From contig JAAXWP010000002.1 of assembly GCA_013334925.1 (NCBI GenBank), positions 83,410-147,409 on the forward strand: 64,000 bases of DNA, given 5' to 3'. The notes under the pieces were generated by a model, which ran no database searches, was not told the DNA's origin, and saw only the letters and a program-made list of their open reading frames with translations. The position numbers and the translations under genes are program-made. Shown here one piece after another: positions 26,992 through 41,775 of this stretch (the first letter of the stretch is position 1; each line of letters opens with the position of its first letter). This DNA is from Chlorobiaceae bacterium. Lineage in GTDB: Bacteria > Bacteroidota > Chlorobiia > Chlorobiales > Chlorobiaceae.

Positions 26992-27167
26992 CCAGCTGAT
27001 ATCTATCTGAACGCCACGTCACACCACACAACTGCCACACTGTCGACCATATCGTCGAACAATCGACGGTCCGGTCGAAGAATCAGGCACTCACCATCTA
27101 CTTAACAAGCTCGCCATATTCAGTTAACTGTTTTAATCAGATAGGGTTACAACTCAAGCCCCCGACA

Positions 27168-27183
27168 TGGAATGATTCTTGCA
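27168..27183 (+). promoter_or_regulatory. Sigma-54 (-24/-12) promoter
   Basis: TGGAATGATTCTTGCA: GG at 27169-27170 and GC at 27181-27182 with exactly ten bases between, matching the TGG-N9-TTGCA sigma-54 pattern. It lies about 60 bases upstream of the start of the exported protein at 27242. Confidence 0.6.
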
Positions 27184-27241
27184 GAATTAACGACGCACGA
27201 TTACCTGCAACCTTCACGAATCGAACTTCAGGGAGATTGTC

Positions 27242-27595
27242 ATGAACACACCTCTTCGGATCATGTTATTTGCAACGCTTATAAGCGCCCTTGCTCCAAC
27301 CTGTCAGCTTCTGGCTCGTGGGGGAGGAGGTATGGGTGGAGGCATGGGAGCCGGAAGCGGTTACGGTTCAATGAACCGTTACGGCAACACGGCTCAAGGC
27401 ATGGAGCTTAACGGCAACGGACGACGGGCAACAGATACGGATGGCGACGGTGTCGTCAATGGACAGGATCCGGACTACGTCCGTCCACAGGATGGAACCG
27501 GTCGCGGCGCAACCGATTATCAGGGATCCGGCACAGGATCGAGATTGCTCGATGGCACCGGACCTCATGGTAAACCTGCACCGGCAGCACCTTAA
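27242..27595 (+). CDS. Small exported Gly/Asp-rich protein with 'QDPDY' signature
   Basis: A 117-residue protein with a signal peptide (residues 1-25), a Gly-rich segment ('GGGGMGGGMGAGSGYGS') and one calcium-loop-like stretch 'DTDGDGVVNGQDPDYVRPQDGTG' near residues 64-86. It ends with 'LLDGTGPHGK'. The D-x-D-G-D-G pattern is that of thrombospondin-type-3 or EF-hand loops, which bind calcium outside the cell. The same signature is in 31473-31787. The family has no function known to me. A -24/-12 promoter precedes it and the two-component sigma-54 system follows. Confidence 0.75.
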   Translation: MNTPLRIMLFATLISALAPTCQLLARGGGGMGGGMGAGSGYGSMNRYGNTAQGMELNGNGRRATDTDGDGVVNGQDPDYVRPQDGTGRGATDYQGSGTGSRLLDGTGPHGKPAPAAP

Positions 27596-27755
27596 GCATA
27601 TTCCTGTCATCGGATTGAGCTGGCGGCTGCAGGGGAAAACGCTCCTTCCTGCCGTCGCTGGCTTACCGTTTTTTATTCACCTATGATGCACGGCGTGAAT
27701 AATCGCTTACATCTTCGGCATTTACCTATATTTTGCTGACAAGCTCTTTCGGATC

Positions 27756-29852
27756 ATGCATCGCAGATTGCCTATGCCGGAAAGAAATCACTCCCATTCC
27801 CGAGTGCTGAACATCCCGCCGAAATTTCTGGCAGGGCTGTTTATCGTGGTTATCGGACTGTTTTCCGGTACAGCACTGTATCAATACCACTCCAGAAAGG
27901 CGGAGCTGGAACATCTGCTCCACGAAGAGTCATCGATATTGATCCATGCGCTGACCGATGGCACCGAAAATGCCTTGCTGGGTTACCGGGAAAACTCGTC
28001 ACTGGTCACTGGCGGACTGGTCGATCAGTTGCGACTGATCGAACGAATGGATCGTCGAAAACCGCTTACCTCGGCAGAACTGACCGAGATTGCCGGCGGC
28101 AACAGCATGTATCGGATCACGGTCATCGATCGAAACGGCAAACGGATCGCCTGGAATACCCCTCCCGACCATACTCCGGAGTTTCAGACCTGCAATCCAG
28201 CCGCCATACTGGAGCCATTGTTGACCGGAAAAACAGATATCCTCAATCTTGGCCTCAGAGAGAGCACATCGGGAAGAGGGCCGCGTCTCGTCGTAGCCGT
28301 TGCGCGTTCCAGAGGCGGCGCCATTGTAGGAAATGTCGATGCATCGCGGCTGGTGAACCTGAGAAAACAGCTTGGACCAGGCAGGCTCATCCAGCGGATC
28401 GGCGCAAACAACTCTGCGATTGACTACATCATATGGCAGGACTCGACCGCCATCATCTCGGCCACTCCCAATGTCACTGATGCGAGTTCGATGCAGGATG
28501 ACCCGACCCTGTCGAAAGCACAGCGACAAAACAGAACGATCGCCAGAACCATTAATTTCAACGGTCGAAAAGTCTATGAAATCATCAACCCGTTTATTTT
28601 CCAGGGAAACGAAATGGGGGTTCTGCGAATCGGGATGAAAACCGATCATATCGATGAAGCCACAAATCGACTGCGCACTCGACTCATCATGCTGCTCACC
28701 CTGGCACTGCTGGGTGTTGTTGCCGTCATCAGTCTCATGGTTTCCCGCCGCAACGAAGCACTCATTTCGACAGCATACCAGCGTGAACAACGATTCTCTG
28801 CAGCCATTCTCGAAAATATGGCTGATGCCGTGATTTCGATCGATCCATCCGGAAGGATCACCCTGCTCAACAGGGCAGCCGAACAACTCTTCAGCATCGA
28901 AGGACAAGACGTCACTGGTCAGAACATCGGGGATATAGTCCCGGAATGCGGACGCATCTTTATGGAACTGACCGGTTCCGCGACCTCCATCATCAACCGC
29001 GAATTCAATTGCACCGTCAACGATCACACCCTCGTCATCGCAGGAAATTTCAGTCCGCTTCCGGAGATTGACGCTGACCGGTCGAATGGACGTGGAGCCA
29101 GAAAAAGGAGCGATATTGCGGGCGCCATGGCCGTGCTTCGAGACGTCACCGAACAGCGATTGATGCAGCGGATCATCGAACGTCAGGAAAAACTGAGCGC
29201 CATGGGAGAGCTGGCCTCGGGTGTCGCTCATGAAATCAGAAACCCGCTCAACGCCATCGGTGTCCTGGGGCAGCGTCTCGATATCGAGTTCACGCCGACA
29301 GGTTCCGAAGAAAAAGAGTACCACCATCTCGTCCGATCGATCGTTTCAGAAGTTCGCCGTGTCGATTCCATCATCCGGCGCTTTCTGAAATTTGCACGTC
29401 CGCCGCAGCTTGTGCTGCTCGATACCGCTCTCGACAGCTGGCTTCAGGAATACCGTCCGGTGCTCGAGGGCGAGGCCGAAACCAAAGGCATACATCTGAT
29501 CATGCAGTGTCATGCATCGTGCAGCCTCCCCGTCGACCGGGAGCAGTTGCAGCAGGTTCTGTTCAATCTGGTACGCAACGCTGTCGAGGCATCTCCACAC
29601 GGCAGCACGATCACGCTCTCGACAGGAAAATCCGCAGACAGAGCGTTCATAAAGGTTAAAGATAGCGGCCATGGAATTGATGAGGGAACATTGTCAAAAA
29701 TCTTCAATCTCTATTTCACCACGAAAAAGGATGGCACAGGCATGGGGCTGAGTATCGCCAACCAGATCGTGCAGGCTCATGGCGGCATGATCGAGGTGGA
29801 TAGCCAGCCCGGTTATGGCAGCCGGTTCACCATTGTACTGCCTTTGAGCTGA
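27756..29852 (+). CDS. Membrane sensor histidine kinase (NtrB/ZraS type)
   Basis: A 698-residue kinase. Helix 1 is at about 23-45; an extracytoplasmic sensor region of about 260 residues follows, then helix 2 near 310-330 ('LIMLLTLALLGVVAVISLMVS'). A PAS domain (345-430) leads to the HisKA box 'GELASGVAHEIRNPLNAIGVLGQRLD' with His492. The HATPase has 'VLFNLVRNAVEASPHG' and 'GTGMGLSIANQIV'. The next gene, 27 bases on, is an NtrC-family regulator, so the pair should control sigma-54 promoters. The signal is probably periplasmic. Exported 'QDPDY' genes flank the pair on both sides. Confidence 0.92.
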   Translation: MHRRLPMPERNHSHSRVLNIPPKFLAGLFIVVIGLFSGTALYQYHSRKAELEHLLHEESSILIHALTDGTENALLGYRENSSLVTGGLVDQLRLIERMDRRKPLTSAELTEIAGGNSMYRITVIDRNGKRIAWNTPPDHTPEFQTCNPAAILEPLLTGKTDILNLGLRESTSGRGPRLVVAVARSRGGAIVGNVDASRLVNLRKQLGPGRLIQRIGANNSAIDYIIWQDSTAIISATPNVTDASSMQDDPTLSKAQRQNRTIARTINFNGRKVYEIINPFIFQGNEMGVLRIGMKTDHIDEATNRLRTRLIMLLTLALLGVVAVISLMVSRRNEALISTAYQREQRFSAAILENMADAVISIDPSGRITLLNRAAEQLFSIEGQDVTGQNIGDIVPECGRIFMELTGSATSIINREFNCTVNDHTLVIAGNFSPLPEIDADRSNGRGARKRSDIAGAMAVLRDVTEQRLMQRIIERQEKLSAMGELASGVAHEIRNPLNAIGVLGQRLDIEFTPTGSEEKEYHHLVRSIVSEVRRVDSIIRRFLKFARPPQLVLLDTALDSWLQEYRPVLEGEAETKGIHLIMQCHASCSLPVDREQLQQVLFNLVRNAVEASPHGSTITLSTGKSADRAFIKVKDSGHGIDEGTLSKIFNLYFTTKKDGTGMGLSIANQIVQAHGGMIEVDSQPGYGSRFTIVLPLS

Positions 29853-29879
29853 ACGACATTCATCGCATCAACACACGTT

Positions 29880-31241
29880 ATGGGTATGGACTACACGATT
29901 CTCGTTGTCGAGGACGAACAGCTGCAACTGGAAAGCCTCTCCGGATTTCTGGCAAAACAGGGATACCGCGTTCTGAAAGCCTCGCATCCTGAACAGGCGA
30001 TCACCATTGCGAAAGAGCAGGCCGTAGATCTGGTGCTTTCAGATTTCAGGATGCCGGGCATGAACGGCATTGAACTTCTTGGAAAACTCAAGGAGATAAA
30101 CCCTGCCATCCAGGTAGTCATCATGACGGCATTCGGTACGATCGAATCGGCGACAGAGGCCATGAAACTGGGCGCGACCGATTACATCACCAAACCGATC
30201 GACCTCTACCGGCTGCAGGCCATGCTTCGAATAATCGTGGAACACTCACAGCTGCAGAGCGAGAACCGTCTTTTACGTCAGCAGTTATCTGATCAGTTCA
30301 ATTTCAGCGGCATCGTCTCCGAATCACCGGAAATGAACCAGGTGCTCAATGTGGCCGGCAGAGTCGCCGACAGCAGCGCTGCCGTGCTCATCACCGGTGA
30401 AACGGGAACAGGCAAGGAGCTCGTGGCAAGAACCGTTCATTTTGCAGGTTTGCGCCGCGAAGGTCCATTCCTCGCCGTCAACTGCGCTGCCCTGCCGGAG
30501 AATCTGCTTGAAAACGAACTGTTCGGACATGAAAAAGGAGCCTTTACCGGGGCTGACCGTCAACGCAAAGGACGCTTTGAACTGGCGGAAGATGGAACGC
30601 TGTTCATTGATGAAGTCGGTGAGATCCCTGTTGCCCTGCAGGTAAAACTGCTGCGTGTTCTGCAGGAAAAAGTGTTCGAGCGGATCGGCAGCAGCGAACC
30701 GATCAGAACAAATGCGAGAATAGTTGCTGCAACAAACCGAGATCTCGAAGCCATGGTACGTGACGGCACATTCCGTGAGGACCTCTTCTATCGTCTGAAT
30801 GTCGTCTCGATTCGGATTCCGCCACTGCGGGACAGGCGAGAAGACATTCGTCCGCTTGTCGAAGCGTACATTCGCAAATTTGCGGCGGAAAACAACAAAC
30901 GGATCGCGGGCATTTCACGGGAAGCCATGGATGCGCTTATGAAATATGACTATCCCGGCAACATACGTGAACTTGAGAACATCATTCAGCAATCCATCGT
31001 CCTGTCCAGAACGGAAACCATCATGCGCTCCGACCTTCCCGGACGGGTGCTCGAACTGCCGAAAACGAGAACGTCGTCATCGGGAAACGAATCACTGATC
31101 GAAAAGGTGGAAGCATTCGAACAGGCCATGATAACCGAGGCGATGAACCAGACCGGCCGTGTACAGACCAGGGCTGCGGAGCGTCTTGGAATCACGGAAC
31201 GTCATCTGCGCTACAAGCTGAAAAAGTACGGGATGAAATGA
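29880..31241 (+). CDS. NtrC/ZraR-type sigma-54 response regulator
   Basis: A 453-residue regulator; starts at 29880 or the ATG two codons later (MDYTILVVEDEQ). The receiver (1-120) is complete, with phospho-Asp in 'VDLVLSDFRMPGMNG' and Lys in 'DYITKPID'. The AAA+ domain has 'GETGTGKE', 'GAFTGA', 'GTLFIDEVGEI' and 'FREDLFYRLN'. The Fis-type helix-turn-helix is 'VQTRAAERLGITERHLRYKLKKYG'. It is the cognate partner of the kinase at 27756. The -24/-12 promoters at 27168, 31377 and 35800 are likely targets by position. Confidence 0.93.
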   Translation: MGMDYTILVVEDEQLQLESLSGFLAKQGYRVLKASHPEQAITIAKEQAVDLVLSDFRMPGMNGIELLGKLKEINPAIQVVIMTAFGTIESATEAMKLGATDYITKPIDLYRLQAMLRIIVEHSQLQSENRLLRQQLSDQFNFSGIVSESPEMNQVLNVAGRVADSSAAVLITGETGTGKELVARTVHFAGLRREGPFLAVNCAALPENLLENELFGHEKGAFTGADRQRKGRFELAEDGTLFIDEVGEIPVALQVKLLRVLQEKVFERIGSSEPIRTNARIVAATNRDLEAMVRDGTFREDLFYRLNVVSIRIPPLRDRREDIRPLVEAYIRKFAAENNKRIAGISREAMDALMKYDYPGNIRELENIIQQSIVLSRTETIMRSDLPGRVLELPKTRTSSSGNESLIEKVEAFEQAMITEAMNQTGRVQTRAAERLGITERHLRYKLKKYGMK

Positions 31242-31338
31242 ACTGCTTCGGCCCGACCGTTTGGTCTTCATTTCGACCAACTGGTCGAATTCAATCCCAT
31301 ACAGCTGTTTGCCGCCAAGAGGAAAACAACACTTAAGC

Positions 31339-31392
31339 TATTGATATAGAATCAGTTAAATAAAGCTACGAATTCCTGGCACGCAAATTGAA
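31339..31392 (+). promoter_or_regulatory. -24/-12-like promoter with upstream TATTGATATA box
   Basis: TGGCACGCAAATTGAA at 31377-31392, with GG at 31378-31379, ten bases, then GA. The -24 half is a perfect sigma-54 match; the -12 half has TTGA instead of TTGC. TATTGATATA (31339-31348) lies 38 bases upstream of TGG, the same box and nearly the same distance as at 35761. It precedes the exported-protein operon starting at 31473 by about 80 bases. Confidence 0.6.
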
Positions 31393-31472
31393 AATGGTAT
31401 ATCGAGGGCAGAAACCTGCATAAGAGTGCCCCCGATCAATCATTATCAACCTTTCATTCACAGGAGTATGCC

Positions 31473-31787
31473 ATGAAAAAGTTTTTGAAACTCACCGCCA
31501 TGGCCGGAATGCTGCTGGGCACGATGCCAGCCGCTCAGGCACTTGCCGCTGGTAATCCCCTTTCGTCGCTCTTCAACCTGGGCTTCGTCGATCTGAATGG
31601 CGACGGAATCAACGACAATGCTCCTGATGCCGATGGTGATGGTATTCCGAATGGTCAGGATCCCGATTACATCGCGCCACAAGATGGCACCGGTTACCGT
31701 AACGGCGCAACGACCGCTCCCGGAACCGGAACCGGAACAGGCATATGTGATGGCACCGGTCCCAAAGGTGCTACACGGGGACGCTGA
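31473..31787 (+). CDS. Small exported 'GDGIND / QDPDY' protein
   Basis: A 104-residue protein with a signal peptide (1-26, ending ALA-A). 'FVDLNGDGINDNAPDADGD' and 'GIPNGQDPDYIAPQDGTG' (about 38-73) hold two calcium-loop-like D-x-D/N-G-D-G segments, followed by a Gly/Thr tail ending 'CDGTGPKGATRGR'. It is a paralogue of 27242-27595: both share NGQDPDYxxPQDGTG and DGTGP-[HK]-G. It is first in a run of four same-strand exported proteins. The start has an AGGAG site ('CACAGGAGTATGCC'). No function is known. Confidence 0.8.
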   Translation: MKKFLKLTAMAGMLLGTMPAAQALAAGNPLSSLFNLGFVDLNGDGINDNAPDADGDGIPNGQDPDYIAPQDGTGYRNGATTAPGTGTGTGICDGTGPKGATRGR

Positions 31788-31814
31788 CATGCAGTATCGC
31801 TGACGATCAAGATA

Positions 31815-31838
31815 AAGGAGCGTCACCTGACGCTCCTT
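31815..31838 (+). terminator. Hairpin between exported-protein genes
   Basis: AAGGAGCGTCA (31815-31825) and TGACGCTCCTT (31828-31838) form an 11-bp palindrome with a two-base centre, followed by CAATTCTTAT. It could partly terminate or stabilise mRNA of the first gene, giving it higher expression than the downstream genes. Confidence 0.65.
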
Positions 31839-31879
31839 CAATTCTTATCGGTCAACTCAACAGAAATAACAAAAGCACC

Positions 31880-32215
31880 ATGAAAACGCTGCCTTGCGCC
31901 ATCATCGCCCTGCTGCTGACCATACCCGGCCAGCAGGCGTCGGCAGAAGAAAACTTCGCGAGAAAACCTGGCCCTGAAAAGATCGAAACCATCGCTGCTA
32001 TCGACATCGAAAAATCGAGAAGAGTACACTTTGTCGACGAAGATGGGGACGGCATCAATGATGTCGTTCAGCAACGGGCATTGTTTCAGGGAAGCGTGCG
32101 TCATGATGGCGACTATCAGGAAAATCAGGGCCTCTTCATGAATGGAGAGAGCGGAATGAACGGACAGAATGGGTCCAGCAGTCAGAAATATTCAGGGAAG
32201 GGTTTCAGAAAATAA
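31880..32215 (+). CDS. Small exported protein with 'DEDGDGIND' loop
   Basis: A 111-residue protein with a signal peptide (1-22, ending ASA-E). Near residue 50 it has 'HFVDEDGDGINDVVQ', the same loop as in 31473 ('FVDLNGDGINDNA'). The rest is polar, with Gly/Asn/Ser-rich 'NGESGMNGQNGSSSQ' and a basic tail. It lacks the QDPDY half of the signature, so it looks like a shorter branch of the same family. It lies between the first exported gene and the outer-membrane barrel gene, 24 bases from the latter. Confidence 0.7.
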   Translation: MKTLPCAIIALLLTIPGQQASAEENFARKPGPEKIETIAAIDIEKSRRVHFVDEDGDGINDVVQQRALFQGSVRHDGDYQENQGLFMNGESGMNGQNGSSSQKYSGKGFRK

Positions 32216-32239
32216 TCGGTTCAACTTCAGTTATCAGAC

Positions 32240-33394
32240 ATGAAACGAGCAATCGCCCTCATCTTTATCACACTCTGGCCATCGGTGAGCATGGCGAACT
32301 GGCAGGCCAGGGCATCTGTCGAAACCAGTGTCGAAAACAACGTTTTTCGCAACAGCGACAATGAACACGATATCGTATCCGAAACCACGCTTTCTCTGAG
32401 CAGAACCTGGGCATGGAAGCCATGGAGTGCAGCCATCTCATACGAAGGAAGTTATGTCGGATTCATGGATCATGGCTCACATGATTATCTCTTTCATCAG
32501 GCTGGAATGTCCATGCAACGAAATCTGGAGCATGACGGATTCCTGCGCGGAGGTTTTCGTACGGCAATGAGATCGGATGGTGATGCCTATGAGCTCTATG
32601 ACTATCGAGAATATCAGCTCTTCATCGATGCGAAGTTGCCTGTTAATGATCGACTGACGGTATTTACCGGTTACCATCTGCGCCAGCGAGCTTACGATGA
32701 ACTCGATGAACTCGACAACATCGAGCACCGACTCTACGCAAGACTTCGCCATACATCAGTCAAAGGTCTGACACTGACACTCTCGTCTGAACTGGGATTC
32801 AAAAGCTACCAGACCACAGATGGAAGCGAAAGCATCATCACCGGAAGCGGCTCCCGTTCCCGAAAAATCGTCACCACCGCCTCGAACGAAACCACGCTGA
32901 CAGCCGGTCAATGGATCAAGGAGCTGAATGCCACACGTCCAATCATTGACGAAAAGACCGGTTTGAGATTGTCGGTCGTGCATCGGAGCAATTTCGGAGA
33001 CCAGGCCATGGCGATCAGTGGCCTGAACGCCGATCAGTATACCGAAACCGATCTTTTCGATGACCCCTACAGCTACGAAAGTCTTGAACTGCGTGGCATG
33101 GTGTCAAGAGTGCTGCCCTATGGAGTCACCGCTCGCATCGGATTCGATTACGCCAACAAGGACTATCAGGATGCTGCACTGGATGCCATCGGTAATCCCC
33201 TGCCAGGTGAACCGATGAGACGTGACCGTCAATATTCGCTCTGGGCCCGCATGGAAAAATCATTCACCGTGAACGCATGGCACACAAACCTGAACCTCTA
33301 CGGACAGTACCGGCACATCAGGAACAGCTCGAATGACTCGTATTACGACTACCGTGCAACAAGCTTTACCGCAGGTGCCGAACTGAATTTCTGA
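32240..33394 (+). CDS. Outer-membrane beta-barrel protein
   Basis: A 384-residue protein with a signal peptide (1-19, ending SMA-N). The remainder is an alternating pattern of amphipathic strands with many Tyr/Arg/Asp residues, ending 'SFTAGAELNF'. A terminal Phe on an aromatic-hydrophobic strand is the usual signal for BAM-dependent insertion. No close family is recognised. It may anchor or secrete the small exported proteins encoded upstream in the same apparent operon; this is inference. Confidence 0.75.
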   Translation: MKRAIALIFITLWPSVSMANWQARASVETSVENNVFRNSDNEHDIVSETTLSLSRTWAWKPWSAAISYEGSYVGFMDHGSHDYLFHQAGMSMQRNLEHDGFLRGGFRTAMRSDGDAYELYDYREYQLFIDAKLPVNDRLTVFTGYHLRQRAYDELDELDNIEHRLYARLRHTSVKGLTLTLSSELGFKSYQTTDGSESIITGSGSRSRKIVTTASNETTLTAGQWIKELNATRPIIDEKTGLRLSVVHRSNFGDQAMAISGLNADQYTETDLFDDPYSYESLELRGMVSRVLPYGVTARIGFDYANKDYQDAALDAIGNPLPGEPMRRDRQYSLWARMEKSFTVNAWHTNLNLYGQYRHIRNSSNDSYYDYRATSFTAGAELNF

Positions 33395-33466
33395 ACCGCA
33401 TGCAAACGCTTACCGAACGGGTTACGGTAAGCACTCTATCGACCAATAACCCATAACCTGGAGGAG

Positions 33467-33832
33467 ATGATTATGAAACAGAAAAAGATGTTGCTGGCGA
33501 TGCTTGCCGTATCACTCTCATTTGACGCAGGAGTGACCATCGCCGCAGAAACGGGAGGTGTTCAGGTGCAACAACAGGAGCAGATCTATGGCAGCCAGCT
33601 CATGACGCAACAGGAGCGGATGGAATACCGCTCAAGCATGAGGTCGGCAAAAACACTGGAAGAACGGGAACGCATCCGCAACGAACATCATGAAAAGATG
33701 AAAGTCCGAGCCCAGGAGCGTGGAGTCACCCTGCCGGACCAGCCGCCTGCCGGCGGTGCCGGAATGGGACCGGGAGCTGGCGGAGGCTGGGGTACTGGTG
33801 GCGGAGGCAGAGGTATGGGCCCGCGCCGTTAA
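33467..33832 (+). CDS. Exported Arg/Glu-rich helical protein with Gly-rich tail
   Basis: A 121-residue protein with a signal peptide (1-28). The middle is a charged helix 'SQLMTQQERMEYRSSMRSA' followed by 'TLEERERIRNEHHEKM' and 'RAQERGVTLPDQPP'. This block is conserved in many proteobacterial exported proteins of unknown role, to my recollection. A Gly/Met-rich tail follows ('GGGWGTGGGGRGMGPRR'). The start has GGAGGAG upstream. It is the last of the exported cluster and is closed by a 15-bp hairpin. Confidence 0.75.
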   Translation: MIMKQKKMLLAMLAVSLSFDAGVTIAAETGGVQVQQQEQIYGSQLMTQQERMEYRSSMRSAKTLEERERIRNEHHEKMKVRAQERGVTLPDQPPAGGAGMGPGAGGGWGTGGGGRGMGPRR

Positions 33833-33836
33833 CTGT

Positions 33837-33875
33837 CATCCCTGGAGCGACGCGGTTGGGGTCGCTCCAGGGATG
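33837..33875 (+). terminator. Strong hairpin between convergent genes
   Basis: CATCCCTGGAGCGAC (33837-33851) and GTCGCTCCAGGGATG (33861-33875) form a perfect 15-bp stem with a nine-base loop. It starts four bases after the stop of the exported gene and lies before the end of the convergent DUF389 gene. It probably stops both transcripts; no long T-run is present. Confidence 0.75.
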
Positions 33876-33898
33876 GTATTCTCAATGACGACATGCCA

Positions 33899-35203
33899 TC
33901 AGTTAAAAACGACCAGGATTCCGGGATTCTTCAACCTGATTTTGAGCCATTCCCTGATTTTTTCTTTACTCGAACGATCGAGTGGCTTCAGAGAAGAGAC
34001 CAGGACGCAGGTCCGGGATACTGGTTGAGTCCCGGTACTGTCAGCAAACTGATATGAATCGGCAAAAAAACAACCTGAAATTTCCGGATATAGCGGCTTC
34101 AACTCTCGCAGCAACTGCAGACCGGTAGATTTTTGCGCGCGGAGACTATCCAGTTTCAGCCTGCTTCGCTGCAGATCGGCAGACAGACGGGAAATTTCGA
34201 ATTTCAACTGATCGGATTCCCTGAACTGTTCAGAATTGTCCCCAATCACCAGCCCCTGTTCGAAGTCCAGAGTTACCTGTTCAAGACCGAAATCCTTTGC
34301 GCGCTTTGTCAACTGCAATTTATCGGCATCTGTCAATGGTTTACCCCCGTAGACCATTGAAATAACACGATGGTCGGGATCGACGGCATATCTGAAAAGA
34401 TAGTCACCCCCGAAATAGCTCACGCTTCTGATGAATCGACCTGCATTTTCCGTAAAACGCTCCTTCTGCACCAGAAGGTAACCGAAATACACGCTGGGTA
34501 TCAGGGTAACCAGTATCACGACCGTGATCAGTCGATTGATATGTCGTTTTTTCGCTTCATCGATGTCCGTTCTGATTGGAAAACGCATCAACCTGGAAAA
34601 AGCCACCGTTGCGAGTGCAATAAATACGGTATTTATGGCGAACAGATAGAACGCACCCAGAAAAAAGGCGATTTGTCCAGTCGCAAGGCCGTAACCGGCA
34701 GTGCACAGGGGAGGCATGAGTGCGGTGGCGATGGCGACTCCTGGTACGATGTTTCCTTTCAGTTTGGTTGTAAGGGATATCGTCCCGGCCAATCCTCCGA
34801 AAAGCGCTACCAATACATCATAGATCGTGGGGCTCGTCCGGGCAAGCAGTTCCGAATGGGCGCTGGAGAGTGGACTGATGGCAAAATAGAGGGTCGAAGT
34901 TACCAGACTCACGAGCACCGCAAAGATATAATTCTGGAATGCCAGTCTCAGCAAGTGGAAATCATGGGTTGCCAGCCCATACCCCATTCCGTTGATCGGA
35001 CCCATGAGAGGTGAAATCAGCATGGCGCCGATAATCACAGCTGTCGAGTTCATGTTGAGCCCAACCGATGCAAGAATGATCGCTGAAATGAGCACCCATA
35101 TGCGAGCGCCTTTGAACGAGATATCCGACTCAAGCGTCTTCCGGATGTCATCGCTGCTCTCTGCGTCCTGCCTGATCGCAAGGTTACGAAGTAAACTGAT
35201 CAT
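33899..35203 (-). CDS. DUF389 membrane protein
   Basis: A 434-residue protein. Residues 1-235 hold the DUF389 membrane core: 'VGLNMNSTAVIIGAMLISPLMGPINGMGYGLATHD', 'LVALFGGLAGTISLTTKLKGNIVPGVAIATALMPPLCTAGYGLATG'. The C-terminal half is soluble, with a coiled-coil-like segment ('SDQLKFEISRLSADLQRSRLKLDSLRAQ'). The family is widespread but its role is unknown. It is convergent with the exported-protein operon and separated from the glycosyltransferase gene by a 655-base region. Confidence 0.85.
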   Translation of the reverse strand: MISLLRNLAIRQDAESSDDIRKTLESDISFKGARIWVLISAIILASVGLNMNSTAVIIGAMLISPLMGPINGMGYGLATHDFHLLRLAFQNYIFAVLVSLVTSTLYFAISPLSSAHSELLARTSPTIYDVLVALFGGLAGTISLTTKLKGNIVPGVAIATALMPPLCTAGYGLATGQIAFFLGAFYLFAINTVFIALATVAFSRLMRFPIRTDIDEAKKRHINRLITVVILVTLIPSVYFGYLLVQKERFTENAGRFIRSVSYFGGDYLFRYAVDPDHRVISMVYGGKPLTDADKLQLTKRAKDFGLEQVTLDFEQGLVIGDNSEQFRESDQLKFEISRLSADLQRSRLKLDSLRAQKSTGLQLLRELKPLYPEISGCFFADSYQFADSTGTQPVSRTCVLVSSLKPLDRSSKEKIREWLKIRLKNPGILVVFN

Positions 35204-35858
35204 GCTCCTGTTGAAATAAGTTAGACTTCTTTTGATGCAAAATAGACATTAAGTCAGTCATGAAACCGCCATACACTCTCCGTGATAGACTTTTTCAGCC
35301 CCAATCCATCACGAGCTGGCATGACTTCAGTAATGGCTCCGGCAAGATACCGTATCAACCTCCGTTCCGCAGCCATGTTCCAACCAGTGTCGCGCCACGC
35401 TCAGATTGACATCCGGAAAAAACCTTGCGCGACCCAATGACTGATCCCTTTCCAGTCCATGGCTACCACAGATATCGGACAAGAAATTCAGCCAGTCCAG
35501 GTCCATTAACGATCACAATCACCAAAAAACAAGGACTATTCATTCTCATTTTCATCACCTGCCGCTGCTGTATCACCCACAGTCTCATCTCAATACCGCA
35601 CCAAATACATCAACCACCATACAGACACATACTAACAACTTGTATAACAGGTAGTTACAAACCCGAATACAACCGGCAAAACCACATGCGCCGTCTCAAA
35701 ATCAAGAAGACAAACTCAATCTTATTTAACACACTTAACCAAAAAAGAAAACCATTATCTTATTGATATATAATAGGATAAAAAGAAATAAAATACATCT
35801 GGCACGCATATTGATGTAAGAGCAGTAGAGAATCTTTCAACCCCTAATCTCTACTGCA
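35204..35858. other. Intergenic region before glycosyltransferase operon
   Basis: 655 bases without a credible gene. The frame at 35425-35766 is low complexity with no ribosome-binding site. The right half is AT-rich. CCATTAACGATCACAATC (35503-35520) is a degenerate copy of the TTAAC-type box seen before the molybdoenzyme operon. A -24/-12-like promoter ends the region. Confidence 0.5.
35761..35815 (+). promoter_or_regulatory. -24/-12-like promoter with upstream TATTGATATA box
   Basis: TGGCACGCATATTGAT at 35800-35815, with GG at 35801-35802, ten bases, then GA. TATTGATATA at 35761-35770 lies 39 bases upstream of TGG. Both elements match those at 31339-31392 almost exactly, arguing for shared control of the exported-protein operon and this glycosyltransferase operon. 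The start codon is about 45 bases downstream. Confidence 0.65.
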
Positions 35859-37229
35859 ATGTCACAGAAAATAGGTACATTACACCCGATTGATTTCCGT
35901 GTTACCGGCACGCCGAAATCGAAAAGCGCTTACGCAACGGTAACCGCAAAATTCATCTACGCTTTGATCTTCGCAATCAGCTGGATGGCACTTTCCGTCT
36001 GGATCTCCGCTCCATGGTATGACTCGCTCGGAGCTGAGATTGGCGTCGTTCCGGCCGGATTCCTGATCACCTTCATCGCCATCGTCCCAGGCTTCATCAA
36101 TGCGTTCGTCTTCGTGTCGACCATTCTCGACAAACGGCCTCAGATCGGCAATATCGCCAAATACCCTCCGGCTACCGTCCTGGTTGCTGCCTACAACGAA
36201 GAGGCCTCGATCGGTGAAACCGTGGAAAGCCTTTTCAATCAGAACTACCCTGGCGATCTGAAGGTTATCGTCATCAACGACGGATCGAGCGATAAAACCG
36301 CCTGGATCGTCAGAACGCTGACCCGCAAGTACGAGAACCTCGAACTGATCGACCTCGAAAAGAACGCCGGCAAAGCCAATGCCCTCAACCAGGGGCTGAA
36401 GGCCTGTTCGACCGACATCGTCATCACGGTCGATGCCGACTGCACCGCTCATGTCGATGCCATAAAAACCATCGTCGGGCGTTATCTGACCGATCCGGAA
36501 ACCACGACTGCTGTGGCCGGTTCGATCATGGTCAGGAACCCGAAACAGAGCTGGATCACCAAGGCTCAGGAGTGGGACTATTTCCTCGGCATCTCGATCA
36601 CCAAGAGAATCCAGTCCATGTTCCAGGGCACGCTCGTCGCTCAGGGAGCCTTCTCGCTGTACGATCGCAGAACCCTGGTCGAGCTTGGCGGCTGGCCGGA
36701 GATGGTCGGTGAAGATATCGTGCTGACCTGGAAGATGCTGGACGCAGGTTACCGCGTTGGCCATGCCGAAAACGCTTATGTCTACACCACGACCCCATCG
36801 ACGCTCAAGCAGTTCGCACGTCAGCGCCGCCGCTGGTCGAGAGGCCTCATGGAAGCTTTCAAGGCAAACCCGCGAATTCTGTTCAGGCCAAGACTGACGA
36901 TGATGTTCATCTGGTGGAATACACTCTATCCGCTGATGGATATCGCCTTCACGTTCGGATACATCCCGGGTATGATCCTGGCTCTGTTCGGCAAGTTCTG
37001 GATCGTCGGTCCCATGACCCTCTGCATCCTGCCGCTGACCATCCTGATGAACTCGGTCATGTACCAGCGCTGCAAGTCGTCACTCGAAGAGAAGCAGCTC
37101 ACGACCCCGACCGACAAACTGGGACTGCTTATCTACAGTTTTGCCTATCCGATGTTCCTGCAGCCGGCCTGTGTCGTCGGATACTTCTCCGAGTTCATGA
37201 ACATGAAGAAAACCTGGGGAACGAAGTAA
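35859..37229 (+). CDS. PgaC-like family 2 glycosyltransferase (polysaccharide synthase)
   Basis: A 456-residue membrane glycosyltransferase with two N-terminal helices (30-50, 65-88) and several C-terminal ones. The catalytic residues are in place: 'AAYNEEASIG', Asp141 in 'NDGSSD', 'DADC' at 192-195, 'GED' at 284-286 and 'QRRRW' at 322-326. This is the processive beta-glycan synthase layout of PgaC/IcaA, which make poly-N-acetylglucosamine. The next gene is a candidate outer-membrane barrel, consistent with polysaccharide synthesis and export. There is no PgaB deacetylase or PgaD here, so the polymer may differ. Confidence 0.88.
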   Translation: MSQKIGTLHPIDFRVTGTPKSKSAYATVTAKFIYALIFAISWMALSVWISAPWYDSLGAEIGVVPAGFLITFIAIVPGFINAFVFVSTILDKRPQIGNIAKYPPATVLVAAYNEEASIGETVESLFNQNYPGDLKVIVINDGSSDKTAWIVRTLTRKYENLELIDLEKNAGKANALNQGLKACSTDIVITVDADCTAHVDAIKTIVGRYLTDPETTTAVAGSIMVRNPKQSWITKAQEWDYFLGISITKRIQSMFQGTLVAQGAFSLYDRRTLVELGGWPEMVGEDIVLTWKMLDAGYRVGHAENAYVYTTTPSTLKQFARQRRRWSRGLMEAFKANPRILFRPRLTMMFIWWNTLYPLMDIAFTFGYIPGMILALFGKFWIVGPMTLCILPLTILMNSVMYQRCKSSLEEKQLTTPTDKLGLLIYSFAYPMFLQPACVVGYFSEFMNMKKTWGTK

Positions 37230-37283
37230 CCTGAATCGAATATCGATGCAATAACGATTACCTCCATCAGACAAACCACTCCC

Positions 37284-38213
37284 ATGAAAAAGCTCGTATC
37301 GTTCATCCTCTGTGCCGTCATGCTGCAGTCCCTCTCCGGAGAGGCTGCAGCCCGACAGGCTGTCTCGCTGCCAAGCGTCTTCATCTCCTCGGACAGCGAC
37401 GGTTTCTCGTCCCAGAAATACCGTGCAGGTTACTACCCGGTGTACGAACACGGATGGTCTTACACCGGTATCGAATTCCAGAAAAACTACTACGACCAGC
37501 ACGATTGGGATGCTGCGGGAAGCGAACTGCGCCTGACAACAAAAAAGCTGAACCCGCGTAACGCATTGGGCTACACGGCCACCGTAGGCCTCAACACCAT
37601 TGGTGACCATCACCTCGTCACCGCAGACGCAGACTGGGCGTTCAGGATTGCCGACAAAACCCGGGGAGAACTGATCTTCAGCCGAGACCGCATCGAAACC
37701 GAAAGCGCCCTTGAAGATGGCAACAACTACACGCTCGCCGGGTTCAGCCTGGAACAGCAGCTTGCCGACCGCCTGACCGTGATCGGCATGGGTGGCAATA
37801 TGTGGTTCGCCGATTCGAACACCAGGCCGTTCGTCAGGTTCAGAGTGGTCTATGACCTCATACCGAAATACGGAATCACCGCACAGCTCCGCCACCGGCA
37901 GTACTGGGATACGGACGTGAATGTCCCAAGGGAGTACTTCAACCCGGAGCGCTATCGTGAAACCATGGCGGCCGTTGGCATCCGCAGAAGAATAGAGGGC
38001 TGGACTCTTGCCGGAACAGCCGGGTACGGATATCAGAAAGTGAACAGTGATTCGAGCACACCGACGCGGCTCTTCGAGGTCAGCGTCACCAGCCCGATCG
38101 CCGGAAAAACATTCTTCCAGGCATCAGCCGGTGAGAGCAAAGCCGCTGAATTCCACGGTCCGGACTACCACTACCGCTATCTGTCGGCTTCGCTCTTCTT
38201 CTCGCTCGACTGA
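37284..38213 (+). CDS. Outer-membrane beta-barrel protein linked to polysaccharide synthase
   Basis: A 309-residue protein with a signal peptide (1-24, ending AAA-R) and a continuous series of amphipathic beta strands rich in Tyr, Arg and Phe, ending 'YLSASLFFSLD'. Length and pattern suit a 14-16 stranded barrel, and the position 54 bases after a PgaC-like synthase suggests a role in moving the polymer across the outer membrane, like the barrel part of PgaA. There is no TPR region. Function is inferred from context only. Confidence 0.7.
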   Translation: MKKLVSFILCAVMLQSLSGEAAARQAVSLPSVFISSDSDGFSSQKYRAGYYPVYEHGWSYTGIEFQKNYYDQHDWDAAGSELRLTTKKLNPRNALGYTATVGLNTIGDHHLVTADADWAFRIADKTRGELIFSRDRIETESALEDGNNYTLAGFSLEQQLADRLTVIGMGGNMWFADSNTRPFVRFRVVYDLIPKYGITAQLRHRQYWDTDVNVPREYFNPERYRETMAAVGIRRRIEGWTLAGTAGYGYQKVNSDSSTPTRLFEVSVTSPIAGKTFFQASAGESKAAEFHGPDYHYRYLSASLFFSLD

Positions 38214-38345: not shown

Positions 38346-40961
38346 TCACTCCAGGGATGTTTCATCTTGTCTGCAAGATTGCGGAACTTGCTCCGAATGG
38401 CGTATGCAGGACTGCAAAGCTGTAGAGGTTTCTGCCAAAACCATACGCAAGTGCTCCAGCCAGTCGTCACCTTCCGGCCAACGACCTGCACGGAATATAT
38501 CATCGAGATTTTCCGCGAGCAGTTGAAGTTTCAATGCACCGATTGTGGCAGACACTCCTTTGAGTGAATGACTCGCACGCATGGCCATCGATACATTATC
38601 GATAGTTCCTGCTGTTTCAAGCTCCGCAACGAGCCGTGGACCATCCTGCTGAAACTCATGTACAAACCAGTCAGCCAATTCACTACCCCCGGTTGCCACG
38701 ATATGTCCGATAACCGACGGATCGAGCAATACACCTGGCAAACCGGACAAATCGGAACTATGGGTACATGATACCTGACGATGATATCCAGAATGATGGT
38801 CTGGAGCAGAATGAGCATTCAACCGGTTCAACCAGAACGCAACGGTCGAAATCAGATCCTGCTTCGAGAGCGGCTTTCCGATACAGGCATTCATACCGCT
38901 GTCCATCACGCTCTCTATGGTCTCGCGCCCGCTGTTACCGGTAACGGCGACGATCGGTATGTCCGCGAATGCTTTGAACCTCCGAAATGGCTCTCCGCTC
39001 CTGATCTTTCTGGAAGCTTCGACACCATTCATGACCGGCATTTCCATATCCATGAGAACGATGTCGAACTCCATACGTTCGAGAAGTTCAAGCACCTGCC
39101 GGCCATTTTCAGCCTGAGTCACGATGCATCCCTCATTTTCAAGAATAATGGTGATGAATTTTCTCGAAATGGCATTATCGTCAGCGACCAGAACACGACA
39201 CCCGGTCAGCAATGATTCGTTCTGAATCCGCAAGCTCACCCGGTCAGTGAAGAAATAGCGATCAAAGAGCCCCGCAAGACCATCGGCAGTGAGTGGTTTG
39301 GCGACAAATTCATTCATGCCAATCTGAACTGTTCGTCTCACAGCAGCCTCCTTCGATAGTGCTGTAACCCCTACGATCACTGCGTCACGATAATGCAGCA
39401 GCATTGCGGGAGTCATATTGAGCCCTGAACGCAAAAGCCTGACTGTTTCATCGCCATGTAAACCCGGCATCTCGATATCCATCAGGATCATATCATACCG
39501 GCACTTTGCCGCCATTTCAAGACATTGCCGTCCACTCTCGGCCACATCGACCTGACAATTGAACGCCTTCAGGCATTCTGCATGCACTCTCCGGTTCACC
39601 TGCTGATCGTCGACAACCAGTATGCGTTTGGTCGCAAGGAGCTGTTTTTTGATCGACTGAACAGTTTTGGATTCATAGCGAGGCAGAACAATGGTAAACT
39701 CTGTCCATCGATTTTCAACCGAATCGCAGATGATCGTACCGGAAAAAGATTCCACGACGCGGCGGCAGAACGACAACCCGAGCCCATTGCCATCGTGCTT
39801 TCCCGAACTGTAAAAACGGTTGAATATTTTTTCGCGCATCGCCACAGGAACCCCCGGACCATTATCTCTCACCCTTATTACATTACCGACCTGAGTGGTA
39901 TCAGCAGAGATGTCTATCCTGAAATCCTTTTTCCCACTGTAGTAAAGCGCATTGCTGATCAGGTTGAACAGGACATAGACAAACTGGTCCTTATCGCCGA
40001 AGAAGTCAAAATCCCCTCGAATTTCCGTAAAAATCATTGACCTCTCGTCAGGGCTCCTGTAACTATAGGTATCCAGGGCCGCCCTTATGGTCTGGCGAAT
40101 CGGATATCTCCTGAAATTCTGCTGATCGACCTCCCGTTCACGCAGATTGGAGAGAATGGAATCGATCATCCGGTTTCCGGACTTCACCGTATCGAGGCCA
40201 TCGAGAACCACCTTGTGAATACTCACCAGGTCGTTTTGCTTCAGCATGAATTCGCGTGACTTGCCGTCAGATCCGGAAGGCAAGGACGGAAGCAGTGCCT
40301 GAATGTTTTCCATGCTCAGGGCAATGGCGTTGAGCGGATTTCTCATCTCGTGAGCGATCGATCCTGAAAGACTTTTCATGAGCGAGAGCCTTGCCTGCTG
40401 ACTTGCCTGTTTCCGGTGATTCAGAAACAGACCACCGAAATAGCATATGATGAAAATCGGAAGATATGCATCATCGAAATATCGATACCATACCTGTCCA
40501 TCGGTCAACAGTATCAGCAGCCATGCCAGACCATAGGCTGCCAGGATCATCAAAGAAACAATCAGCCAGTCATAGAAAATGATGATAAAAAACAGCAGAC
40601 AACCCAGGGTGGCAAGCACCCAGATGAAAGCGCCTTCATTTTTCAGAAACATGAAGAACGAAAAAAAGGGAAGGGTATAGAAACCTCCGGCAAAAAAGTA
40701 CCAGGGATAATACGATTTCAATCTGAATGGCAGGAATCGGAAGAATACCTGTGGAAGAACAAAAAGTACCCCGACGAGATACAGCACAATGCTGTTGTAA
40801 TGTTGTGGATAAACATATTCCATAACCAGAAAGAGAAACGGAAATCCAACCAGTCCAACAAGACCTATGAAGGGCGTGTTCGGCTCCGAATAATCGACAA
40901 TTTCAATCGCCGTTTTCCTGAGCCTTTCCAGCAGTTTCGACTCGCTGAATATCTGGAACAT
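38346..40961 (-). CDS. CqsS/LqsS-like hybrid histidine kinase with two receivers and HPt
   Basis: 871 residues from the ATG at 40961; a TTG 17 codons upstream is possible. The membrane part (25-180, about six helices) resembles the CqsS/LqsS sensors of alpha-hydroxyketone autoinducers: 'YSEPNTPFIGLVGLVGFPF', 'EYVYPQHYNSIVLY' and 'SYYPWYFFAGGFYTLPFFSFFMFLKN'. HisKA is 'LSGSIAHEMRNPLNAIALSMENI' with His204. HATPase (about 300-435) has 'DNGPGVP' and 'GNGLGLSFC'. Two receivers follow ('RILVVDDQ'...'ILMDIEMPG' and 'RVLVADDN'...'VLMDMEMPV'), then an HPt with His798 in 'SHSLKG'. CqsS itself has only one receiver. No synthase gene (cqsA/lqsA) is adjacent. A C9 run lies just upstream of the ATG. Confidence 0.85.
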   Translation of the reverse strand: MFQIFSESKLLERLRKTAIEIVDYSEPNTPFIGLVGLVGFPFLFLVMEYVYPQHYNSIVLYLVGVLFVLPQVFFRFLPFRLKSYYPWYFFAGGFYTLPFFSFFMFLKNEGAFIWVLATLGCLLFFIIIFYDWLIVSLMILAAYGLAWLLILLTDGQVWYRYFDDAYLPIFIICYFGGLFLNHRKQASQQARLSLMKSLSGSIAHEMRNPLNAIALSMENIQALLPSLPSGSDGKSREFMLKQNDLVSIHKVVLDGLDTVKSGNRMIDSILSNLREREVDQQNFRRYPIRQTIRAALDTYSYRSPDERSMIFTEIRGDFDFFGDKDQFVYVLFNLISNALYYSGKKDFRIDISADTTQVGNVIRVRDNGPGVPVAMREKIFNRFYSSGKHDGNGLGLSFCRRVVESFSGTIICDSVENRWTEFTIVLPRYESKTVQSIKKQLLATKRILVVDDQQVNRRVHAECLKAFNCQVDVAESGRQCLEMAAKCRYDMILMDIEMPGLHGDETVRLLRSGLNMTPAMLLHYRDAVIVGVTALSKEAAVRRTVQIGMNEFVAKPLTADGLAGLFDRYFFTDRVSLRIQNESLLTGCRVLVADDNAISRKFITIILENEGCIVTQAENGRQVLELLERMEFDIVLMDMEMPVMNGVEASRKIRSGEPFRRFKAFADIPIVAVTGNSGRETIESVMDSGMNACIGKPLSKQDLISTVAFWLNRLNAHSAPDHHSGYHRQVSCTHSSDLSGLPGVLLDPSVIGHIVATGGSELADWFVHEFQQDGPRLVAELETAGTIDNVSMAMRASHSLKGVSATIGALKLQLLAENLDDIFRAGRWPEGDDWLEHLRMVLAETSTALQSCIRHSEQVPQSCRQDETSLE

Positions 40962-40966
40962 GTAGT

Positions 40967-40975
40967 GGGGGGGGG
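40967..40975 (-). repeat. C9 homopolymer upstream of sensor kinase start
   Basis: Nine G on the plus strand, nine C on the coding strand, 6-14 bases upstream of the ATG at 40961. This is exactly where a ribosome-binding site should sit, and none is seen. Such tracts slip easily in replication. If translation starts at the upstream TTG (41012), a change in length would shift the frame. Confidence 0.75.
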
Positions 40976-41775
40976 AGTAGTTCGATTTAAGAACAGGTTT
41001 TAGGAGTGTCAAAACCAGCCGCCGTAAAACACACCATTCATCCTCTCGAAATCAATACAATATATATTTTACAATACATTAAAACACGCATATTTTTCGC
41101 ACATCATTAAGTCAAGCGACCGTATACCTTTATGGCCCTCCATGTATTGCAGACCCTGCAGACAAAAGCACCAGGCGATCACAGCACCCGCTTGACATGA
41201 CAACAATCCGATCGGGTTCGCTTCGGGCAGATGGACAGATCGACACATCCCTGAAACTTTGCCTGAAATATGGGCCTTTGTATCTCCATCGCTCTGGACC
41301 TGACCATGGAGATCACATGATCGACCTGCAGACGGCAGCGTCTCATACTCTCGAGAAAGCCTTCGAAGGTACCGGTTTGTCCGGGCCTGGACTCGTAAGC
41401 TCTGAGGCTGGGTGGCGTCTTGCCGTCTATGGTCCCAACCAGCTGCGCTTTCACCAGACGCCATCCTCATGCTGCAATATCACCATCACAGATAAGGCTG
41501 TCAAGGAGGAGTGCGACGGTCCATCGATTCTTTACAGCAGCCCCGATCGACGACGCAAACTGAGGAAACCGGTGTCCAGACGCTTCTCCTGCAGAAAAAA
41601 AACCGGAACTTCGAACGGCATCGGATCGTCCGCAACGCGCTGTTCATTAATGAAATAGTGAAACCGATGGTTCAGACCGTGTTGCAGGCCAAACCTGGAC
41701 GTTTTGGTTGTACCGAAAAATCCGCTTGATTATAAGCATAAGTGAATCGACAACTTATCATGAGGAGTACCCAGC
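40976..41775. other. Intergenic or decayed region
   Basis: About 800 bases between the sensor kinase start and the alcohol dehydrogenase. Overlapping short frames on both strands (for example 41179-41454 minus and 41197-41658 plus) show no family resemblance or good start. The first 100 bases are AT-rich and likely hold the kinase promoter. The rest could be a decayed gene; I cannot say of what. Confidence 0.4.

What the first reader, a model, noticed from the sequence alone, without database searches (positions are those of the whole stretch)
27168..38213. Candidate undescribed sigma-54-controlled envelope system: kinase/NtrC pair, 'QDPDY' exported proteins, barrels and a polysaccharide synthase
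A membrane kinase and NtrC-type regulator (27756-31241) are flanked by small exported proteins sharing NGQDPDYxxPQDGTG and GDGIND loops (27242, 31473, 31880). An outer-membrane barrel (32240), an Arg/Glu-rich exported protein (33467) and a PgaC-like synthase with its own barrel (35859-38213) follow. Three units start with -24/-12-like promoters, two of them nearly identical. Together this looks like one regulon building an extracellular matrix with calcium-binding small proteins. I know of no named system with this layout.
Basis: partly seen in the sequence, partly recalled or inferred. Interest (0 to 1): 0.78.

Follow-up and report, generated by a model that had tools for sequence, protein, structure and literature searches.

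The report
Widespread sigma-54 switch for QDPDY peptides
In this green sulfur bacterium and in many related loci from several other phyla, genes for small, predicted-exported proteins with likely calcium-binding loops share one DNA control signature and sit near a sensor kinase and regulator that likely switch them on, together with a predicted outer-membrane barrel and, in some relatives, cytochromes; what it senses and what the proteins do are unknown.

Summary
The core of the finding holds. The kinase/NtrC pair, two QDPDY proteins, the GDGIND protein and the barrel (27242-33394) form a module that recurs in Chlorobiaceae, Ignavibacteria, Calditrichota, KSB1, Neomarinimicrobiota and others. 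New here is the switch: a palindrome TCGAC-N6-GTCGA about 90-135 bp upstream of a -24/-12-like promoter. In the home genome the exact pair occurs only before the two QDPDY genes. In a phylum sample of 296, 38 of 40 QDPDY genomes carry the regulator's close relative, and 38 of 42 regulator genomes carry QDPDY. The two QDPDY genomes without the regulator also lack palindrome and promoter. The PgaC-like synthase with its barrel (no close match in 60 relatives, no palindrome) and, probably, the Arg/Glu-rich protein do not belong, so a polysaccharide matrix has little support. I read it as an envelope-sensing sigma-54 regulon that works like PEP-CTERM/PrsKR or ZraPSR but meets neither definition. 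Signal and function are inferred. The QDPDY proteins match no Pfam or NCBIfam family.

The parts
27043..27058 (.). enhancer-like palindrome TCGACCATATCGTCGA, first of a doublet 20 bp apart, 125 bp upstream of the promoter-like site
   Evidence: exact match
27063..27078 (.). second palindrome of the doublet, TCGACGGTCCGGTCGA, 105 bp upstream of the promoter-like site
   Evidence: exact match
27168..27183 (+). -24/-12-like sequence TGGAATG-ATTC-TTGCA
27242..27595 (+). QDPDY protein 1 (117 aa), predicted exported, one DxDGDGxxNGxD loop, glycine-rich
   Evidence: no Pfam or NCBIfam family
27756..29852 (+). membrane histidine kinase (sCache_3_2, PAS, HisKA, HATPase_c)
   Evidence: homologues beside QDPDY genes
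29880..31241 (+). NtrC-type response regulator (receiver, sigma-54 AAA+, Fis HTH with TERHLR in the recognition helix)
31253..31268 (.). degenerate palindrome (3 mismatches) 20 bp upstream of the next one; possible second site of a doublet
31273..31288 (.). enhancer-like palindrome TCGACCAACTGGTCGA, 104 bp upstream of the promoter-like site
31377..31392 (+). -24/-12-like sequence TGGCACG-CAAA-TTGAA
31473..31787 (+). QDPDY protein 2 (104 aa), predicted exported, two Asp-rich loops, C-terminal CDGTGPKG and basic tail
   Evidence: low-confidence model, mean pLDDT 57.3
31880..32215 (+). GDGIND protein (111 aa), predicted exported; similar small proteins stand at the same place in several relatives
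32240..33394 (+). predicted 16-strand outer-membrane barrel, recurrent member of the module

Best explanation
The window holds a kinase/NtrC-type regulator pair and two QDPDY genes whose upstream DNA carries the same palindrome (TCGAC-N6-GTCGA) 104-125 bp before a -24/-12-like promoter sequence, and the pair would likely sense an envelope signal and switch these genes on through sigma-54. SHOWN by sequence: the gene set, the palindrome-promoter pairing, its restriction to these two promoters in the home genome, its recurrence before QDPDY, barrel, DUF4405 and c-type cytochrome genes in other genomes, and the co-occurrence with the regulator. INFERRED: that the kinase phosphorylates this regulator; that phosphorylated regulator binds the palindromes and activates RNA polymerase with sigma-54 from helically phased sites; that the kinase's predicted extracytoplasmic Cache domain reads a small molecule or the redox/metal state of the envelope; that the QDPDY proteins leave the cytoplasm by their signal peptides and fold around Ca2+ (or another divalent ion) at the cell surface or in the periplasm; that the barrel carries them or their ligand across the outer membrane; and that the DUF4405 cytochrome b plus c-type cytochrome of some relatives pass electrons from the quinone pool to the same compartment. 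My most likely role is therefore an envelope redox/metal-ion stress response, not a polysaccharide matrix.
For: Palindrome: 3 exact in the window against 0.11 expected. Palindrome plus -24/-12 core in the home genome: 3 matches at two promoters, those of the two QDPDY genes; reversed-pattern control 1. Looser pattern in 30 genomes: all 25 regulator carriers given hit, all 5 non-carriers do not; 44 matches, 43 of them by their coordinates at QDPDY/GDGIND or cytochrome loci, against 3 control matches (carriers; three further carriers of the family, G068, G144, G248, were not given). In 86 loci, 54 exact palindromes 60-200 bp upstream of a promoter of score 10 or more, against a mean of 0.14 for 59 permuted arms (largest 6); distances peak near 93, 103, 113-116, 124 and 133-135. 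Co-occurrence: 38 of 40 and 38 of 42 in 296 genomes. The two QDPDY genomes without the regulator (G024, G199) have neither palindrome nor promoter. In G100, and on another contig in G087, a second QDPDY gene away from the regulator carries the signature. HK and/or RR homologue in 63 of 86 loci. ERHLR in the recognition helix of 38 of 44 regulator orthologues. rpoN domain in 12 of 12 genomes tested, one only in part. DUF4405 lies between barrel and kinase in L078 and within the run of genes in L122; DUF4405 proteins show heme-b spectra (PMC11334425, passages).
Against: No expression data. The -24/-12 motifs alone are hardly above chance in the window. Palindrome-promoter pairs were found in 60 of 86 loci, and in 31 of 43 non-duplicate loci L105-L151, some of them not before module genes; 12 of the 43 show none, among them Ignavibacteria-type L115, L116, L126, Calditrichaceae-type L122, L140 and both Aminicenantes loci L111, L147. 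The home locus lacks the DUF4405/cytochrome arm; paralogues lie elsewhere without the signature. Nothing in the sequence names the signal. Four genomes have the regulator without a detectable QDPDY gene (G021, G068, G144, G248). L063, L064 and one L074 gene are QDPDY genes with a promoter-like site but no palindrome. Two divergent regulators beside QDPDY genes read ESTLR (L147) and ERVLR (L151), and L151 still has an exact palindrome, so the helix-palindrome match is not strict. The Ca2+ fold rests on loop spacing and a dockerin match at E=0.07; the model is low-confidence. Counts are on related sequences, and the pattern was designed after seeing some of them.
Confidence: 0.6

Rival explanations
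1. One reading: one regulon that builds an extracellular matrix, with the PgaC-like synthase making the polymer, its barrel exporting it and calcium-binding proteins cross-linking it.
For: The synthase unit begins with a promoter-like site nearly identical to that of QDPDY 2 and lies 4 kb downstream. PEP-CTERM/PrsKR shows that a similar layout can go with exopolysaccharide (PMC1569441, passages). The barrel's best Foldseek matches include the alginate exporter AlgE. A GT2 family of 21-26% identity recurs near four QDPDY copies that stand apart from the kinase/regulator (L066, L067, L069, L070).
Against: No synthase match at E <= 1e-60 in 60 relatives; no palindrome upstream of it; no glycosyltransferase family among those found in 5 or more loci in the stricter neighbour count. 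Odds raised from 0.10 to 0.12 on checking because of the GT2 neighbours.
Confidence: 0.12
2. A ZraPSR-like metal-stress response: the kinase senses a metal ion, and the QDPDY proteins are periplasmic metal buffers that also feed back on the kinase.
For: Same layout of kinase, NtrC regulator and small exported metal-loop proteins; ZraR/ZraS models match (419.5 and 205 bits); a small protein family sits in 5 Marinimicrobia/Neomarinimicrobiota-titled loci, the one member scanned (L139) matching LTXXQ; a QDPDY gene lies beside a TonB-receptor-like gene in L063.
Against: ZraR and ZraS cut-offs (760, 479) are not reached; no LTXXQ match in the window proteins scanned; the loops look like Ca2+ loops rather than zinc sites; cytochromes are not part of ZraPSR (recalled).
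Confidence: 0.2
3. An electron-transfer regulon: the true product is the DUF4405/c-type cytochrome relay (and multiheme cytochromes in Ignavibacteria-type loci), and the QDPDY proteins only anchor or scaffold it.
For: DUF4405 in 17 and c-type cytochrome in 13 of 86 loci; signature directly upstream of the cytochrome gene in L010, L011, L048, L052; a multiheme cytochrome family in 6 loci.
Against: Most of the 86 loci, the home locus included, show no DUF4405 or this c-type cytochrome, though some are short contigs; the palindrome lies mostly before QDPDY-type genes (61 of 83 sites classed so by the script, several more on reading).
Confidence: 0.2

Closest known systems
PEP-CTERM/EpsH system with PrsK/PrsR (Haft et al. 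2006, PMC1569441, passages read)
   Same: Transmembrane kinase plus NtrC-type regulator whose phylogenetic profile follows a shared upstream DNA motif with a sigma-54 site before genes of exported proteins.
   Different: QDPDY proteins match no PEP-CTERM model; home genome has no exosortase match; regulator below the PrsR cut-off; no polysaccharide genes conserved with the pair; that paper reports its motif only in Proteobacteria. I did not compare the two motifs base by base.
ZraPSR (zinc/envelope stress; layout recalled)
   Same: Kinase, NtrC-type sigma-54 regulator and small exported proteins with metal-type loops in one cluster.
   Different: Equivalog cut-offs not met; no ZraP/LTXXQ protein here; adds a barrel and, in some relatives, cytochromes.
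DUF4405 cytochromes of flavinylation and ferrosome systems (PMC11334425, passages read)
   Same: A DUF4405 membrane protein in the cluster of some relatives.
   Different: Here it travels with a sigma-54 kinase/regulator, QDPDY proteins and a barrel; I did not look for ApbE or flavinylated partners.
Thrombospondin type 3 / dockerin calcium loops (TSP3 recalled; dockerin match)
   Same: D-x-D-G-D-G-x-x-N-G-x-D spacing.
   Different: Short stand-alone peptides with glycine-rich tails; no Pfam hit; best solved match only E=0.07.

Membership tests
NtrC-family sigma-54 response regulator | receiver, sigma-54 AAA+ and Fis-type HTH domains in one protein | tested here: met
   PF00072, PF00158, PF02954 all over cut-off
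Sigma-54-dependent regulon | -24/-12 element plus distal enhancer-like site, and rpoN in the genome | tested here: met
   sequence level only:
Sigma-54-dependent regulon | transcription depends on sigma-54 and the activator | not testable with these tools
   no expression data
PEP-CTERM/PrsKR system | exosortase EpsH in the genome | tested here: not met
   PF09721: no match in G000; over cut-off in 3 of 12 genomes tested, two of which (G100, G113) carry the module
PEP-CTERM/PrsKR system | PEP-CTERM sorting tail on the exported proteins | tested here: not met
   no Pfam or NCBIfam match for 27242, 31473, 31880; no C-terminal hydrophobic segment in the sequences
PEP-CTERM/PrsKR system | regulator reaches the PEP_resp_reg (TIGR02915) cut-off | tested here: not met
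   406.5 bits against 502.6
ZraPSR | kinase and regulator reach the ZraS/ZraR cut-offs | tested here: not met
   205 against 479 and 419.5 against 760
ZraPSR | ZraP-like LTXXQ/Metal_resist partner | tested here: not met
   none among the window proteins scanned; LTXXQ match only for the L139 neighbour
AtoSC | kinase and regulator reach the AtoS/AtoC cut-offs | tested here: not met
   277.1 against 646 and 522.7 against 714
Surface lipoprotein assembly modifier (SlipAM) | SlipAM barrel | tested here: inconclusive
   window barrel 28.0 bits over cut-off 22, but the one relative scanned, L045, does not match PF04575
Surface lipoprotein assembly modifier (SlipAM) | N-terminal TPR domain (recalled) | tested here: not met
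   strands begin at residue 19 of the model, only the signal helix before them
TSP3/dockerin-type calcium-binding protein | calcium-binding loop with bound Ca2+ | tested here: inconclusive
   loop positions invariant in A1; dockerin match E=0.07; binding not testable here
PgaC poly-GlcNAc synthase (35859) | reaches the TIGR03937 cut-off | tested here: not met
   175.5 against 422.3

The most novel reading that the evidence does not exclude
A previously unnamed, multi-phylum envelope system in which a dedicated sigma-54 switch coats the cell surface with calcium-folded QDPDY peptides exported through their own barrel and kept in redox contact with the quinone pool through a DUF4405 cytochrome relay.
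Probability: 0.25. Interest if true: 0.78.

Novelty: new variant of a known kind. Interest (0 to 1): 0.6.

Why it matters
It defines, from DNA alone, a compact regulon with its switch, likely binding site, promoter and outputs, spread over several phyla of mostly uncultured bacteria, for protein families that match no Pfam or NCBIfam model. The binding-site prediction is exact enough to test with one purified protein, and the cluster ties an orphan family of calcium-loop peptides to DUF4405 cytochromes and to envelope sensing. The layout parallels PEP-CTERM/PrsKR but appears independent of it.

Tried and rejected
Matrix model with the PgaC-like synthase: rejected as part of the module, with the GT2 neighbours told above. 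The Arg/Glu-rich protein 33467: relatives in 12 of 60 other genomes but elsewhere; no meaningful solved relative; left out. DUF389 protein (33899-35203, opposite strand): no match in the loci; left out. PEP-CTERM, ZraPSR and AtoSC membership: cut-offs not met. -24/-12 motif as evidence by itself: hardly above chance. QDPDY structure: model too weak to use. A link to photoferrotrophic Chlorobium was considered; one paper search gave listings only and I did not pursue it. Literature: seven searches listed no paper that I recognised as describing this system; 'QDPDY' occurs in 0 papers of that library, which lacks most subscription journals and all bioRxiv preprints. Of three papers I read passages only (PMC1569441, PMC12316311, PMC11334425); PMC12316311 gave nothing used here.

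Rows dropped before counts: seven loci that duplicate genomes already fetched (L102, L103, L104, L106, L117, L133, L137) were left out; so were L013 (a distant regulator without the module), L079 and L080 (extra flanks) and L152-L168 (weak or archaeal matches). L009-L012 were picked by the regulator, the other loci by QDPDY. Of one search's 698 proteins only 120 were listed. One search scored only the 5 best first-look candidates per genome, so a regulator could be missed; one search used one QDPDY sequence, so divergent copies could be missed. The regulator 'close relative' set was cut by me after seeing a gap between 459.6 and 437.1 bits. In one search three paralogues (L006, L007, L008) were given for comparison but only L006 appeared in the result, and the regulators of L139, L148 and L150 were not picked up, so the helix comparison is thin. 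The regular expression for QDPDY misses some members (for example L009, L044, L045, L059, L062, L071), which one search found by alignment.
Full report
What is there. The window lies in a 2.73-Mb, 101-contig genome of a family whose other members' records are titled Chlorobiaceae and Chlorobium (contigs matched by length to my unnamed loci, e.g. G195, G222, G263). Between 27242 and 33394 lie, all on the + strand, a QDPDY protein, a membrane kinase, an NtrC-type regulator, a second QDPDY protein, a GDGIND protein and a barrel. Pfam and NCBIfam place the kinase and regulator only in general families; their best equivalogs (AtoSC, ZraSR, PEP-CTERM regulator) stay below their cut-offs. The three small proteins match nothing in either library.

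The barrel. Eighteen sequences, the window's included, align over the length. The model from that alignment has mean pLDDT 84.6 and 16 long strands by my count of the listed strands. Foldseek's best solved matches are mainly porins and the alginate exporter AlgE at TM about 0.5, which says 'outer-membrane barrel of porin size' and no more.

The small proteins. 698 relatives at E <= 0.001 were found, 120 listed; of these 120 none has a precomputed Pfam domain, and those with a source's own name are called hypothetical. Across 19 sequences the positions D52, D54, D56, N60, D63 and D65 of QDPDY 2 are invariant, the spacing of a calcium loop; a profile search of solved structures gives only dockerins, at E=0.07 and worse. 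The predicted structure is mostly without regular elements and of low confidence (mean pLDDT 57.3).

The switch. Reading the upstream DNA showed one palindrome, TCGAC-N6-GTCGA: twice before QDPDY 1 (27043, 27063) and once before QDPDY 2 (31273). It is present three times in 64 kb against 0.11 expected, reached in 0 of 100 shuffles. In the whole genome the palindrome alone is common (46 sites against 19 for the reversed pattern), but palindrome plus a -24/-12 core at the right distance occurs only before these two genes (three matches; reversed-pattern control one). In relatives the same pairing recurs before QDPDY, GDGIND, barrel, c-type cytochrome and DUF4405 genes. Over 86 loci, 54 exact palindromes lie 60-200 bp upstream of a promoter of score 10 or more; the mean for 59 permuted arms is 0.14, the largest 6. 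The distances cluster in steps of about ten bases (93, 103, 113-116, 124, 133-135), often as doublets 20 bp apart. These counts are on related sequences, so I quote no probability. Support from outside the family: pairs with an exact palindrome in records titled Calditrichota (L108, L149), KSB1 (L128, L131) and Neomarinimicrobiota (L139, L146, L148, L150, L151), and with one mismatch before QDPDY in Ignavibacteria (L107, L112). Against it: 12 of the 43 non-duplicate loci L105-L151 show no pair at all (L111, L115, L116, L118, L120, L122, L123, L126, L129, L136, L140, L147), several of them with long flanks.

Genome-wide test. A looser pattern run on 30 genomes matched in all 25 given that carry the regulator and in none of the 5 that do not (G003, G020, G024, G076, G199); 44 matches in all, of which 43 lie by their coordinates at QDPDY/GDGIND or cytochrome loci and one (G022:C4) elsewhere; the reversed-pattern control gave 3 (presence of the regulator). 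I chose these genomes, had seen the motif in many of them before, and did not give G068, G144 and G248, which also carry the regulator.

Co-occurrence. Among 296 genomes drawn from the phylum, 40 have a QDPDY protein and 42 a close relative of the regulator (at least 51% identity, 459 bits or more; the next match has 437 bits; 5 candidates scored per genome). 38 have both, 252 neither; outside the window's family the two sets are the same 15 genomes. The two QDPDY genomes without the regulator (G024, G199) have neither palindrome nor promoter. Four have the regulator without a QDPDY hit; in the one of these that I examined (G021, L010) the signature stands before a c-type cytochrome and DUF4405 pair instead. 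In G100, and on another contig in G087, a second QDPDY gene away from the regulator carries the signature. The DNA-recognition helix reads ERHLR in 38 of 44 regulator orthologues, ERNLR or ESNLR in five, and one tail is disrupted; two more divergent regulators beside QDPDY genes (L147, L151) read ESTLR and ERVLR, the latter with an exact palindrome.

What else belongs. By neighbourhood clustering of 86 loci (85 plus the window), DUF4405 occurs in 17 and the c-type cytochrome in 13 (names). In L122 (Calditrichaceae) kinase, QDPDY, DUF4405, barrel, regulator and QDPDY stand in one run on one strand, and in L078 QDPDY, barrel, DUF4405, kinase and regulator do. Ignavibacteria-type loci add a DUF2202-type protein and a multiheme cytochrome after the QDPDY gene; five Marinimicrobia/Neomarinimicrobiota-titled loci add a small protein whose L139 member matches LTXXQ. 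Purified DUF4405 protein shows a heme-b spectrum (PMC11334425, passages). The home genome has DUF4405 and cytochrome paralogues elsewhere, without the signature.

What does not belong. The PgaC-like synthase at 35859 has no match at E <= 1e-60 in 60 relatives and no palindrome upstream (best match 4 mismatches), although its promoter-like site nearly repeats that of QDPDY 2. It may be under another sigma-54 activator. A GT2 family of 21-26% identity does recur near QDPDY copies that stand apart from the kinase/regulator in L066, L067, L069 and L070; I take these as generic neighbours, untested. The Arg/Glu-rich protein at 33467 has relatives at other places.

How it likely works. The kinase's Cache domain would read an envelope signal, the regulator would bind the paired palindromes and, with sigma-54 (rpoN domain present), start QDPDY and, by read-through, GDGIND and barrel synthesis; the pair itself may be autoregulated by read-through from QDPDY 1. 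The exported peptides would bind a divalent ion; the cytochromes of some relatives suggest a redox side. Every one of these functional steps is inferred.

Relation to known systems. In logic it is closest to PEP-CTERM/PrsKR, where a kinase/NtrC pair was found by its profile match to a sigma-54 motif before exported proteins (PMC1569441, passages). It fails that family's tests (no exosortase match in G000, though two module carriers, G100 and G113, do have one; no sorting tail; regulator below cut-off). It fails ZraPSR and AtoSC likewise. Seven paper searches listed no description that I recognised, within an open-access library only.

Noticed in passing
window 35859-38213: PgaC-like GT2 and a barrel with a very weak PgaA match (E=0.0096) behind an exact TGGCACG-N4-TTG site; no close match of the synthase in 60 relatives, so possibly acquired; its activator is unknown.
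   Followed up: partly
window 33467-33832: Arg/Glu-rich predicted exported protein of a family found in 12 of 60 other relative genomes at other places, some matches with an in-frame stop.
   Followed up: partly
window 22624-26474 and 38346-41012: A long PAS-type kinase with an OmpR-like regulator, and a hybrid kinase with receiver-like domains, flank the region on either side (read from the translations, not scanned).
   Followed up: no
L063, L064, L074: QDPDY genes beside a TonB-receptor-like gene with a CPMRMD stretch and a small protein with a CDGKCYL or CNGKCYL stretch; this recalls copper uptake (recalled, not tested); promoter-like site present, palindrome absent for these copies.
   Followed up: partly
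L072, L116, L126: After the QDPDY gene: DUF2202-type protein, c554-like multiheme cytochrome, a barrel-type protein with an N-terminal CxxCH and a desaturase-like gene, in the same order.
   Followed up: partly
L128: KSB1 locus with two QDPDY genes, barrel, ABC-exporter genes, an RND-pump-like gene and the kinase/regulator pair, with four palindrome-promoter sites.
   Followed up: no
L152-L158, L160, L162: Weak QDPDY-like matches in Methanosarcinales/ANME-type archaeal records without kinase, regulator or palindrome-promoter pair; probably generic calcium-loop proteins.
   Followed up: no
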